Below are positions 40,263 to 51,827 of a stretch of 64,000 nt of DNA, piece after piece (position 1 is the first letter of the stretch; every line of letters begins with the position of its first letter). The DNA lies in assembly GCF_003841465.1 (NCBI RefSeq), contig NZ_REFZ01000007.1:124001-188000 (forward strand), read 5' to 3'. The notes below the pieces were generated by a model. It was not told where the DNA came from and made no database searches. It worked only from the letters and a program-made list of their open reading frames with translations. The DNA is from Natrarchaeobius oligotrophus. GTDB lineage: Archaea > Halobacteriota > Halobacteria > Halobacteriales > Natrialbaceae. A program made the translations under genes and the position numbers.

Positions 40263-40462
40263 ACCGAGTAAACCCGCCCGCGAGGAGAAAAATGAATTGA
40301 TAGAGACCGCTAGCGCATACCTGCGTCTTTAGGCGCAGATCGAGCGATAAGCAGTGTTCGGCCAGTGTCTGAGAGTGGCGACGACTGGATTTCCCACGTT
40401 TACTTTCACTCCGCATGGCTGACGTATATCCCATCACGGAGCGTAGTGAGCACACAGAACGG

Positions 40463-41722
40463 ATGTCTGCAGTCACGAAAACGCTGGAGTTGCGTCTCGT
40501 CGACCCCAACTCACACAAAGAACGCAAGTTGTGTGAGACCCGCAAGGCGTACCAGCAGGCACTGCAGGCAGCCTTCGACGCCGAATGCACTACTCAGTCA
40601 GCTACCAACGACGTCGTCGTCGAGTACGATCTCTCCGGCTATGCGAAAAACGCGCTCAAACAGTATGTCCCGCAACTCTGTGGTGACAGTTATCACGCCG
40701 ATGAACTCCACGACGACCACCCGGTGAAGTTCACTAACGACGGTATCCAACTCGACCACCAGCCACAGAACGCTCTCGAGTGGTACGTCAAAATCCCGCA
40801 CCACGAGGATTACCACCTCTGGATCCCGACACACGTCAATCCCGACCAACGAGAGTGGCTGGAAGCGGTATACGCTGACGACGCCGAAATGGGTGAAAGT
40901 CGGCTCTTCGAGCGAGATGGAACGTGGTATCTCCACGTCACCGTCACTCGCGACGTGGAGGTCCAATCCGGGACGTCCGCCGACGAGCGGACGCCTATTG
41001 GCGTGGACATCGGAGAAGCGAGTCTCGTCACGGTGTGTCACCGCGATGAGAGCGAATCTCCGGTTCGCCCCAAACTGTGGGCCGACGAGGGCAAGACCGT
41101 TCGTCGGCTCCGTAAAACCTATTTCACCGCTACAAGACGGCTTCAGCGCCATGGTAGTGAGCGAATCGTCGAATCCTACGGTGACGCGCTGTGGAACCAG
41201 ATTGACGACGTGTTCCACCGTGTGACCCGCGAGGTCGTAGAGTACGCTGAGTCTGTCGAGAATCCAGTACTGATACTGGAAGACCTGACCTACATCCGCG
41301 AAAACATGGACTACAGCGCGTACATGAATCGGCGGTTGCACGGATGGGGCTTTGCGAAGCTCCACGCACAGATTCGCTACAAAGCCGCCGAGAGGGGGAT
41401 TCCTGTTGAGACGGTGAATCCCCAGAACACGTCGAAAGTATGCCACGCCTGCGGTGAACACGGCTCCCGGCCACGACAGGCGACGTTCCGTTGCTCGAAC
41501 GACAATTGTTGGGTCGGTGAGTACCAAGCCGACGTAAACGGGGCGATAAACATCGCAGACCGCTACCGTAGTGGAGAGAGTCACCGCCGAAGCGCCCGAA
41601 CCTCCCGGCAGAAGGCAGGTGACGATGACTCGGCTACGGATGGGGCCCCTTTGACCGGGCCACAAGACAGCCACGCAGACGCTGCAACTCAGCAGGAGAC
41701 ACGTGGAACGTATGCGTCTTGA
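40463..41722 (+). CDS. tnpB: TnpB RNA-guided endonuclease, element 1
   Basis: A 419-residue TnpB (OrfB) of the IS200/IS605 superfamily, an RNA-guided DNA nuclease related to Cas12. The RuvC-like triad appears intact: D182 in PIGVDIGEASLV, E273 in VLILEDLTYI and D357 in YQADVNGAINIA. The zinc ribbon has C327, C330, C344 and C349 (KVCHACG and FRCSNDNC). The C-terminal 50 residues are hydrophilic, as in relatives. The ATG at 40463 (MSAVTKTLE) begins at the usual start; an upstream frame adds 16 residues. It probably uses a guide RNA made from its own 3' end. Confidence 0.9.
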   Translation: MSAVTKTLELRLVDPNSHKERKLCETRKAYQQALQAAFDAECTTQSATNDVVVEYDLSGYAKNALKQYVPQLCGDSYHADELHDDHPVKFTNDGIQLDHQPQNALEWYVKIPHHEDYHLWIPTHVNPDQREWLEAVYADDAEMGESRLFERDGTWYLHVTVTRDVEVQSGTSADERTPIGVDIGEASLVTVCHRDESESPVRPKLWADEGKTVRRLRKTYFTATRRLQRHGSERIVESYGDALWNQIDDVFHRVTREVVEYAESVENPVLILEDLTYIRENMDYSAYMNRRLHGWGFAKLHAQIRYKAAERGIPVETVNPQNTSKVCHACGEHGSRPRQATFRCSNDNCWVGEYQADVNGAINIADRYRSGESHRRSARTSRQKAGDDDSATDGAPLTGPQDSHADAATQQETRGTYAS

Positions 41723-41885: not shown

Positions 41886-42275
41886 TCAGTACGTGAGGAT
41901 CTCGAGGCCGTCGATTCGCCCGAAGTGATCGACGTTTTTCGTCACGACGGGGACGTCGTGAACGAGCGCCGTCGCGGCGATCATCACGTCAGCAGCCTCG
42001 ATTGGCGTCCCGTTACGGTGAAGTCTCGCGTTGATTTCGCCAGCGGTCGTTGCACAGTCCCGGTCGAACGGGACTTCTCGGACGTCCTCGAGGACGTTTT
42101 TGACGATCGCTCGCTGATTCTCGGCCGAGTCCGCGAGGTGAACTCCCTCCCAGAGTTCCATCACCGTCACCGAACTCACCCGTGCCGTTCCACGTTCGTC
42201 GACCGTCCGAATCGCTTTTTTAACGGTCTCTTCCCCCCGCAGGACGTCGACGAGAAACGAAGTGTCGAGGATCAT
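41886..42275 (-). CDS. vapC: PIN-domain toxin VapC
   Basis: A 129-residue PIN-domain ribonuclease, the toxin of a VapBC pair. Acidic residues expected in the active site are D4 (MILDTSFLVD), E40 (VMELWEG), D96 (EAADVMIAA) and D116 (NVDHFG). Full length for the family (120-140). It overlaps the antitoxin gene by four bases (ATGA), which fits coupled production. RNA target unknown; many VapC enzymes cut tRNA or rRNA. Confidence 0.92.
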   Translation of the reverse strand: MILDTSFLVDVLRGEETVKKAIRTVDERGTARVSSVTVMELWEGVHLADSAENQRAIVKNVLEDVREVPFDRDCATTAGEINARLHRNGTPIEAADVMIAATALVHDVPVVTKNVDHFGRIDGLEILTY

Positions 42276-49784: not shown

Positions 49785-49949
49785 TCACTCGAGCAGGTCG
49801 TCTGCGCTGTCCGGGAGCGGATCGGCGACGACGCCGTCCTGGCGGCCGAGCACGCGGGCGTGAGCGGCACAGACGAGCCGGTTGTCGTCCCAGGGGATGT
49901 GCAGTTCGACGACCGCGGACCGACCGCAGTCGTCCTCCGAGCAGTCCAT
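49785..49949 (-). CDS. Small Cys-rich protein (54 aa), below usual ORF cutoffs
   Basis: A 54-residue acidic protein beginning MDCSEDDCGRSAVVEL. The Cys pair near the N-terminus (C3, C8) and the later VCAAHARVLG (C27, H30) could form a zinc site. TATA-like aaatac sits about 27-35 bases before the ATG. Element 2 is inserted only 52 bases upstream; before that insertion the gene lay 48 bases downstream of the DUF456 gene on the same strand. Confidence 0.6.
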   Translation of the reverse strand: MDCSEDDCGRSAVVELHIPWDDNRLVCAAHARVLGRQDGVVADPLPDSADDLLE

Positions 49950-49996: not shown

Positions 49997-50001
49997 TTTA
50001 C
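49997..50001 (+). promoter_or_regulatory. Target site TTTAC of element 2 (TAM)
   Basis: The pentamer TTTAC flanks the left edge of element 2. Removing the element joins it to aggaggaagacgg. In IS200/IS605 biology the left-flanking target also serves as the transposon-adjacent motif recognised by the element's TnpB. Confidence 0.65.
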
Positions 50002-50019
50002 AAGCAGTATAGGAGAATG

Positions 50020-50040
50020 CCCCGGGGCTTGACCCCGGGG
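50020..50040 (+). repeat. Left-end hairpin of element 2
   Basis: ccccgggg-cttga-ccccgggg forms a perfect 8-base stem with a 5-base loop, 18 bases inside the left edge. Subterminal hairpins at IS200/IS605 ends are recognised by TnpA. Confidence 0.7.
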
Positions 50041-50102
50041 TTGAATCCGATAGGCTATGATACAAACCAATAAGTAGACACGTCTCGAATCGACAGGCGG
50101 CG

Positions 50103-51329
50103 ATGGAATACAGTCACCGCTACCCTGCCTACCCGACACAACAGGTAGCGGTACGACTGGACTACCACATCGACGTTCATCGCCAAGCGTACAACTACAC
50201 TCTGTACGAGTACGAACACGTTGACGCCGCCAACATCGGCTCAGCGTACAAGCATCACGACCGCCTCACCGACTGGAAAGATGAGTACCCTGTGTTCACA
50301 GAGATTCATTCGAAAGCACTCCAGAAAACCGTCACACGGTTCTACGACAACCTCTCGAACCTCTCTGACCAGAAGGCGAACGGAAACAAGGTAGGTGAGC
50401 TGAAATGGAAGTCGCCGAAGGAGTTCCAGAGTATGACGTACTCGCAGTCTGGCTTCGAACTCAAAAACACGAGTGGCCGACGTGCGACACTCTGGCTCTC
50501 CAAAATCGGCGACATCCCCATCCGATACCACCGCAACATCCCCAACGAAGCAGACATCAAGGAAGTCACAGTCAAGAAAGAAACGACCGGCGACTGGTTC
50601 GTCTCCTTCGGACTGGAAACCGATGAGGCTGACCTGCCCGAGAAGCCCGACGTGGATTCGCTCGACGCGAGCAACAGCGTTGGGGTTGACCTCGGCATCC
50701 TCAACTACGTCCACACGTCGGACGGGAAGACCGTGGACTGGCTCGACCTCGAAGACGAGTACGAGCGACTCCGCCGCGAACAGCGCACACTCTCGCGGAA
50801 GCAGAAAGGGTCGAACAACTACGAGAAACAGCGTCAGGAAGTGGCGAAGGTCAAGCGTCACATCCGCCGGAAGGTGCTGGACTATCAGCACAAGATTACG
50901 ACGTGGCTCGTCCGTGAGTACGACGCGGTATTTGTTGAGGACTTGAACGTGAAGGGGATGTTGGAGCAGTCGCACAACGCCCGGAACAAGCAGGACGCGG
51001 CGTGGCGACAGTTCATCACCCTCCTCGAATACAAAGCACGATTGTACGGCACTCACGTCGTGCAGGTCGAAGCCTCTGGAACGACGAAAGAGTGCGCGTC
51101 GTGTGGTGTGGAGACGGCGAAGCCCATCTGGGTACGCGAACACTCCTGTCCGTCGTGTGGGTTTGCGTGTGACCGTGACGCGAACGCAGCGATGAACGTC
51201 CTTCAACGCGGCTTTTCTGAGTTAGGGCTGGGATGGCCCGAATCCACGTCTGTGGAGACTGCGCTCCCTACGGACACCACTCAGGTGTCTGCAAAGCGCG
51301 TCGTCGAAGCAGGAAGTCTCGGGGCTTGA
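50103..51329 (+). CDS. tnpB: TnpB RNA-guided endonuclease, element 2
   Basis: A 408-residue TnpB of a different subfamily from element 1. The N-terminal helix-turn-helix-like domain has EYSHRYPAYPTQQVAVRLDYHI (core YPTQQVAVRLDYHI). The RuvC-like residues seem intact: D196 in VGVDLGILNYV, E279 in AVFVEDLNVKG and D359 in CDRDANAAMNVL. The zinc ribbon has C331/C334 (ECASCG) and C349/C352 (CPSCG). Its TGA stop lies in the loop of the right-end hairpin (51318-51336). Base content is lower in G+C than the neighbours, consistent with transfer. Confidence 0.92.
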   Translation: MEYSHRYPAYPTQQVAVRLDYHIDVHRQAYNYTLYEYEHVDAANIGSAYKHHDRLTDWKDEYPVFTEIHSKALQKTVTRFYDNLSNLSDQKANGNKVGELKWKSPKEFQSMTYSQSGFELKNTSGRRATLWLSKIGDIPIRYHRNIPNEADIKEVTVKKETTGDWFVSFGLETDEADLPEKPDVDSLDASNSVGVDLGILNYVHTSDGKTVDWLDLEDEYERLRREQRTLSRKQKGSNNYEKQRQEVAKVKRHIRRKVLDYQHKITTWLVREYDAVFVEDLNVKGMLEQSHNARNKQDAAWRQFITLLEYKARLYGTHVVQVEASGTTKECASCGVETAKPIWVREHSCPSCGFACDRDANAAMNVLQRGFSELGLGWPESTSVETALPTDTTQVSAKRVVEAGSLGA

Positions 51330-51345
51330 CCCCGAGGCGATTCAC
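51318..51345 (+). ncRNA. Right-end hairpin and probable omega-RNA 3' end, element 2
   Basis: ctcgggg-cttga-ccccgag (51318-51336) is a perfect 7-base stem whose loop contains the tnpB stop codon, followed by gcgattcac to the edge. TnpB guide RNAs typically run from inside tnpB through this end into flanking DNA, so the guide would begin at 51346. The RNA's start is not mapped. Confidence 0.6.
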
Positions 51346-51827
51346 AGGAGGAAGACGGCGACGAGGAATCCGAATAGGATCGACAGCGTCAACAGCACCT
51401 GCACCGCCGTCGACGCGAGGATGCCGACCGTCGCGTAGAGAGCCGAGCGAGCGCTGTGTCCGGCGTCGCCGTCGCGGACGTACTCGAGGACGAAGACGGT
51501 CCCGAAGAGCCCGACGAGCAGTCCCACCGGTCCGGTAACGATCATCAGCGCGATCCCGACGACGGCGGCGCTCCCGGTCGTCACCCAGGACGCGCCGCCG
51601 GCGCGTGCGGCGATCGAGCCCCCGAAGAACTCCGCGAGCAGGGTGACGACGCCGAGCACCGTCAGGACGACGAGCGCGACCGTGCCGGGCTCGGCGAACC
51701 CGGAGTGCCACCAGTAGAGGTAGACGCCGGAGAGCGAAAGCAGCCCGCCGGGGACGAGGGGAACCACCGTTCCGACGACGCCGACGACTAACAGCGCGAT
51801 CGCGAGGATCGCAACCACCTCGACCAT
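51342..51827 (-). CDS. DUF456 membrane protein
   Basis: A 161-residue hydrophobic membrane protein. It begins MVEVVAILAIALLVVGVVGTVVPLVPGGLLSLSGVYLYWW (core VVPLVPGGLLSLSGVYLY), which is the DUF456 signature, and contains Gly-rich pairs typical of the glycine-zipper type: FFGGSIAARAGG and GIALMIVTGPVGLLVG. The stop codon TGA (51342-51344) is supplied by the right end of element 2. The ATG at 51827 is preferred over a longer open frame starting at 51917. Confidence 0.85.
   Translation of the reverse strand: MVEVVAILAIALLVVGVVGTVVPLVPGGLLSLSGVYLYWWHSGFAEPGTVALVVLTVLGVVTLLAEFFGGSIAARAGGASWVTTGSAAVVGIALMIVTGPVGLLVGLFGTVFVLEYVRDGDAGHSARSALYATVGILASTAVQVLLTLSILFGFLVAVFLL

What the first reader, a model, noticed from the sequence alone, without database searches (positions are those of the whole stretch)
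49997..51347. TnpB element 2 replaces a stop codon without changing the host protein
Seen directly: the element is bordered by TTTAC (49997-50001) and ends at 51345 in gattcac. The adjacent DUF456 gene (minus) now stops with TGA from the element's own end (51342-51344). Taking out 50002-51345 joins TTTAC to aggagg; the DUF456 frame then reads CTC CTG TAA, with the same last residue. So the insertion is neutral for that protein. This both fixes the element's limits and shows one way such elements can land without harm.
Basis: seen in the sequence. Interest (0 to 1): 0.72.

Follow-up and report, generated by a model that had tools for sequence, protein, structure and literature searches.

The report
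Jumping gene lodged in stop codons
A small RNA-guided jumping gene in a salt-loving archaeon sits exactly on a neighbouring gene's stop codon and supplies a new stop codon itself, so the protein is unchanged; relatives of this element do this about ten times more often than the supply of suitable landing sites predicts.

Summary
50002-51345 (1344 bp) is a tnpB-only IS200/IS605 (IS1341-type) element in a haloarchaeon, inserted 3' of TTTAC. Its right end (GATTCAC) gives the opposite-strand DUF456 gene a TGA; removing the element gives TTTACAGGAGG, CTC CTG TAA and the same protein. No exact empty site for this locus is held, but the joined flanks align through the junction with more than ten relatives. 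The same design has a direct empty site elsewhere: hemB, TAG to TGA, 43-bp element, same last residue. Of 217 right ends of this family in haloarchaea, 42 (19%; 41 of 210 independent flanks) end on the stop codon of an opposite-strand gene, against 4 of 209 (2%) free TTTAC sites (p about 1e-9); reading frames 41:1:1. Positions 1-199 bp past genes are not significantly enriched. Target and right end differ by one T/C (TTTAC/TTCAC, or reciprocally TTCAC/TTTAC), which on the other strand swaps TAA and TGA. Why stop codons are over-represented is open. I favour TnpB-driven retention or homing where the guide lies in conserved coding DNA, combined with harmlessness; survivorship alone is the main rival. 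Kind known; stop-codon lodging appears new.

The parts
49997..50001 (+). target pentamer TTTAC left of the element; predicted TAM of this TnpB; on the minus strand it restores G-TAA-A (old DUF456 stop)
   Evidence: TTTAC is the commonest left-hand pentamer among 65 related elements
50002..51345 (+). IS200/IS605-family, tnpB-only (IS1341-type) element, 1344 bp
50002..50060 (+). left end with subterminal hairpin GCCCCGGGGCTTGACCCCGGGGT
   Evidence: DNA fold z = -4.2; shared with short copy on contig C12 and with C17 copy
50103..51329 (+). tnpB, 408 aa, intact RuvC motifs (GVDLG 194, VEDLN 278, DRDANAA 357) and zinc finger CxxC x2
   Evidence: Pfam PF01385, PF07282; NCBIfam guided_TnpB NF040570 283 bits; motifs
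51316..51338 (+). right-end hairpin CTCGGGGCTTGACCCCGAG, expected 3' part of the omega-RNA scaffold (inferred)
   Evidence: z = -1.9; pattern found in 96 of 125 family genomes
51339..51345 (+). right-end terminus GATTCAC; TTCAC mirrors target TTTAC
51342..51344 (-). TGA stop codon of DUF456 supplied by the element
51346..51365 (+). predicted omega-RNA guide region, antisense to the last DUF456 codons (inferred from ISDra2 TnpB)
   Evidence: position; guide rule from PMC8612924; not tested here
51342..51827 (-). host gene DUF456 membrane protein, 161 aa, C-terminus VAVFLL
   Evidence: PF04306; C-termini in relatives
49787..49949 (-). next gene on the minus strand, 54-aa conserved protein MDCSEDDCGRS..., formerly 49 bp from DUF456

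Best explanation
A tnpB-only IS200/IS605 element, mobilised in trans by a TnpA no longer detectable in this genome, inserted 3' of a TTTAC that was the complement of the DUF456 stop (G-TAA-A). Because target (TTTAC) and right cleavage site (TTCAC) differ by one T-to-C, insertion turns TAA into TGA and leaves the last codon intact. Shown: anatomy, stop swap, unchanged protein, a direct filled/empty pair at hemB, and the roughly tenfold over-representation of such sites across haloarchaea. Inferred: the one-base difference serves self/non-self discrimination (TnpB cuts next to TTTAC in the empty site, not next to TTCAC in the filled one), and stop codons are over-represented because there alone an insertion is harmless while the TnpB guide lies wholly in conserved coding DNA, so TnpB-driven retention and homing into empty alleles works best.
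For: Sequence and translation. TnpB identity and intact motifs. Same-ended short copy in the genome. Joined flanks match relatives through the junction. hemB: 43-bp element after TCTAC in one genome, uninterrupted site in a 98%-identical genome with the left flank also homologous (90.8% over 358 nt), TAG to TGA, KQL* kept. Survey: discovery 30/144, other families 15/72 with the looser caller, combined 42/217 against 4/209 free TTTAC sites, OR 12, p 1e-9; 41/210 after merging similar flanks, frames 41:1:1. TnpB-anchored set 8/65, p 0.0015. Hosts are full-length known proteins such as TruD, ALAD, acyl-CoA dehydrogenase. Target/right-end pairs TTTAC/TTCAC 37, TTCAC/TTTAC 16, TTTAT/TTCAC 6. No Y1 TnpA in the genome.
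Against: No strain of this species without the element is held, so TAA as the old DUF456 stop is inferred. The cause of the enrichment is not proven: tnpB-less 43-55 bp copies are at stop codons as often (7/34) as longer ones (7/31), which homing explains only if they derive from full copies. hemB stops vary among species (CTAC, TTAC, CTAT), so cross-species homing would be limited. Gene calls rest on a codon-usage score. No omega-RNA or cleavage data.
Confidence: 0.72

Rival explanations
1. Survivorship only: elements land on any TTTAC; most insertions are harmful or are later lost, and those on stop codons survive because they cost nothing and because deletions running out of the right end into the gene are lethal.
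For: The protein is unchanged; insertions into the two other frames are nearly absent (1 and 1); at one gene five related species keep the element-derived TTCAC or GTCAC stop while the interior decays.
Against: Sites 1-199 bp past genes should be about as harmless but are not significantly enriched (38/217 vs 24/209, p 0.1), and the stop-codon excess relative to them is significant (p 0.0004); long, presumably recent copies are at stop codons as often as short old ones.
Confidence: 0.4
2. Target-site bias of TnpA: insertion itself prefers TTTAC at gene 3' ends, for example through single-stranded template strand during transcription or replication conflicts.
For: Long and short copies show equal excess; IS200/IS605 elements need single-stranded targets (PMC8612924).
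Against: No excess just outside the stop codon, on either side, which a 3'-end accessibility effect would give.
Confidence: 0.15
3. Coincidence at this locus and an artefact of gene calling in GC-rich DNA for the survey.
For: Spurious long ORFs are common in such genomes; the caller is a simple codon score trained on the window.
Against: The same caller on TTTAC sites gives 2%; frames 41:1:1 cannot come from spurious ORFs; ten hosts checked by Pfam, nine hit, several to the profile end; replicated in other families and with a TnpB-anchored set.
Confidence: 0.04

Closest known systems
IS200/IS605 superfamily, tnpB-only (IS1341-type) elements; ISDra2 and IS608 as models
   Same: TnpB with RuvC motifs and zinc finger, subterminal hairpins, no target duplication, insertion 3' of a fixed short target that doubles as TAM (PMC8612924)
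   Different: Target TTTAC and right end TTCAC form a stop-codon swap pair on the complementary strand; TnpA absent from the genome
Haloquadratum PATEs and ISHwa/ISNph IS605-type elements (PMC3119063)
   Same: Haloarchaeal elements with near-terminal palindromes; 52-bp terminal-only versions formed by repeat-mediated core deletion match our 43-55 bp copies
   Different: In the passages and term searches I read, stop-codon occupancy is not mentioned
TnpB as gene drive for insertion sequences in plasmids (PMC11870625)
   Same: TnpB records its insertion site in its guide and cuts element-free alleles
   Different: Shown for plasmids in bacteria; here the proposed drive acts on chromosomal gene ends and is untested
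Elements that restore the 3' end of their target gene (integrases in tRNA genes; my own knowledge)
   Same: Harmless residence at a conserved gene end
   Different: Those carry a copy of the gene end; here only a one-base-changed stop codon is supplied

Membership tests
IS200/IS605 (tnpB-only, IS1341-type) | TnpB/OrfB with RuvC-like catalytic motifs and C-terminal zinc finger | tested here: met
   PF01385, PF07282, NF040570; motifs present
IS200/IS605 (tnpB-only, IS1341-type) | subterminal imperfect hairpins at both ends, no terminal inverted repeats | tested here: met
   (left z -4.2, right z -1.9); conserved between copies
IS200/IS605 (tnpB-only, IS1341-type) | insertion 3' of a conserved short target without duplication | tested here: met
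   TTTAC/TTCAC pairs among 65 elements; direct empty site at hemB for a related short element
IS200/IS605 (tnpB-only, IS1341-type) | mobilised by a Y1 (HUH) TnpA | tested here: inconclusive
   none encoded in the element; no Y1_Tnp (PF01797) in the 99.4%-complete genome although control genomes ring
OMEGA TnpB RNA-guided nuclease | omega-RNA from the right end guiding cleavage next to a TAM equal to the target | not testable with these tools
   no RNA or cleavage data; no Rfam match
PATE, terminal-only | about 50 bp left-right end fusion lacking a core | tested here: met
   for the related short copies, not for the window element

The most novel reading that the evidence does not exclude
Haloarchaeal TnpB elements are stop-codon homing elements: target and right-end motifs are tuned to be two different stop codons on the complementary strand, so the element can occupy the conserved ends of essential genes unharmed, and TnpB with a guide in coding sequence drives it into element-free alleles and protects it from loss.
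Probability: 0.3. Interest if true: 0.85.

Novelty: new variant of a known kind. Interest (0 to 1): 0.62.

Why it matters
It gives a concrete, countable answer to how TnpB elements persist in dense archaeal genomes: an approximately tenfold excess at stop codons, with a one-base rule that exchanges TAA and TGA. It links the proposed self/non-self motif pair of TnpB to host tolerance, offers a natural test of whether TnpB acts as a chromosomal drive, and helps annotation, since gene stops and element ends overlap and element-derived stops outlive the elements.

Tried and rejected
Rfam search of 49-52.5 kb: no match. Direct empty site in the genus: relatives carry TGA or TAG there and no TTTAC. 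One stop-codon host (L460) looked like another DUF456 by its C-terminus; BLAST shows it is not. Left-side enrichment was weak and unclear: 17/57 versus 37/209 within 200 bp. Three loci of the replication set counted at first (L257, L276, L286) had a stop inside the scored stretch; they were removed by the open-frame rule. Literature searches for TnpB with stop codons found nothing relevant, in an open-access library only.

Full report
What is there. Positions 50002-51345 are a 1344-bp tnpB-only IS200/IS605 element. tnpB (50103-51329) scores with OrfB_IS605, the Cas12f1-like TNB domain and guided_TnpB and keeps the three RuvC motifs and the zinc finger. Both ends carry the hairpin with loop core CTTGA. 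The left neighbour is TTTAC, the right end is GATTCAC. The genome holds 13 TnpB matches but no Y1 TnpA, so this copy probably cannot move at present.

The stop codon. DUF456 on the minus strand ends CTC CTG TGA with TGA at 51344-51342 inside the element. Joining 50001 to 51346 gives TTTACAGGAGG and CTC CTG TAA, with the same residues VAVFLL. The joined flanks align without break to relatives, e.g. 81% over 701 nt, and the VAVFLL-like C-terminus is common in the family. The exact empty site was not found, because no strain of the species is held.

Direct proof of the rule elsewhere. In one genome of genus g9 a 43-bp element AAAAAAGCC...GGTTCAC follows TCTAC at the end of hemB; a sister genome 98% identical on the gene side and 91% on the other side has GATCTACAGTTGC uninterrupted. 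HemB ends KQL* in both, TAG in the empty and TGA in the filled site. At a second gene, five species share an insertion that decays inwards while the terminal TTCAC (once GTCAC), the gene's stop, persists.

Survey. The right-end pattern GGCTTGACCYCGDGGYGATTYAC (up to one mismatch) occurs in 96 of 125 family genomes, with no control match. I fetched 144 distinct right flanks and scored 180 nt of each in six frames with a codon score trained on the window. Thirty have an opposite-strand gene whose stop is the element's own TGA or TAA; three have a gene in one of the other two frames. In 72 flanks from other families (up to two mismatches) 15 do by the same score. With an open frame required, the total is 42 of 217; free TTTAC sites in 864 kb of random sequence give 4 of 209 (OR 12.3, p 1e-9). 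Distances 1-199 bp past genes give 38/217 versus 24/209, p 0.1. Merging similar flanks leaves 41 of 210, with frames 41:1:1. Starting from TnpB proteins in named genomes instead gives 8 of 65 (p 0.0015); this set partly overlaps the first. Ten hosts scanned with Pfam include TruD, ALAD, acyl-CoA dehydrogenase, polyprenyl synthase and phosphoribosyltransferase, several matched to the profile end, so they are complete genes.

The one-base rule. Among elements with both ends found, target/right-end pairs are TTTAC/TTCAC (37), TTCAC/TTTAC (16), TTTAT/TTCAC (6). Read on the other strand these exchange TAA and TGA. In ISDra2 the target motif is also the TAM that TnpB needs (PMC8612924); if that holds here, the filled site (TTCAC) differs from the TAM by one base, which would spare the element's own locus. 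That this same change converts one stop into another is the striking point; whether it is selected or fortunate is not known.

Why stop codons. Harmlessness explains why the other frames are missing, but not why the stop codon itself exceeds positions just past genes. At a stop codon the predicted guide (51346 onward here) is entirely coding and hence likely conserved, while a site past the stop has a guide in less conserved DNA (inference). TnpB drive in multicopy DNA has been shown for plasmids (PMC11870625); haloarchaea are polyploid (my own knowledge). I therefore favour guide conservation plus harmlessness, but survivorship remains close.

What is known. PATEs and their 52-bp terminal-only forms, made by repeat-mediated core deletion, are described in Haloquadratum (PMC3119063); our short copies match them. 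I found no report of stop-codon over-representation, within an open-access library.

Noticed in passing
L006 (contig C12:1167-1220) and loci L060, L064, L066-L068, L070, L193, L204: 43-55 bp single-hairpin elements (left end fused to right end) are common in these genomes; they match terminal-only PATEs and mark old insertions.
   Followed up: partly
L191, L142, L143, L094, L007, L118: A sister subfamily with reversed motifs: target TTCAC, right end GATTTAC, giving TGA to TAA swaps.
   Followed up: partly
L389-L392 (orthologues of the L204 host gene): Element interiors shrink to a few bases while the terminal TTCAC (GTCAC in L391) that serves as the gene's stop is kept: element-derived stop codons outlive the element.
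   Followed up: partly
L025 (1379-1464) and L018 (1188-1264): Left-end-like sequences of related elements near the same DUF456/small-gene pair in two other genera, not at the stop codon.
   Followed up: no
window 40415-41722: A second, more distant TnpB-like ORF (435 aa, 126 bits to guided_TnpB), next to a VapC-like PIN ORF (41886-42275, minus; PIN assignment by eye).
   Followed up: no
window 49787-49949 (minus): A conserved 54-aa protein (MDCSEDDCGRSAVVELHIPWDDNRLVCAAHARVLG...) follows DUF456 in many relatives; it looks like a small metal-binding protein of unknown function.
   Followed up: no
L452-L454, L458, L459, L461, L466, L497: TnpB relatives whose right end is GTAACATTCAA rather than TTCAC; a useful control subfamily for the stop-codon rule.
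   Followed up: no
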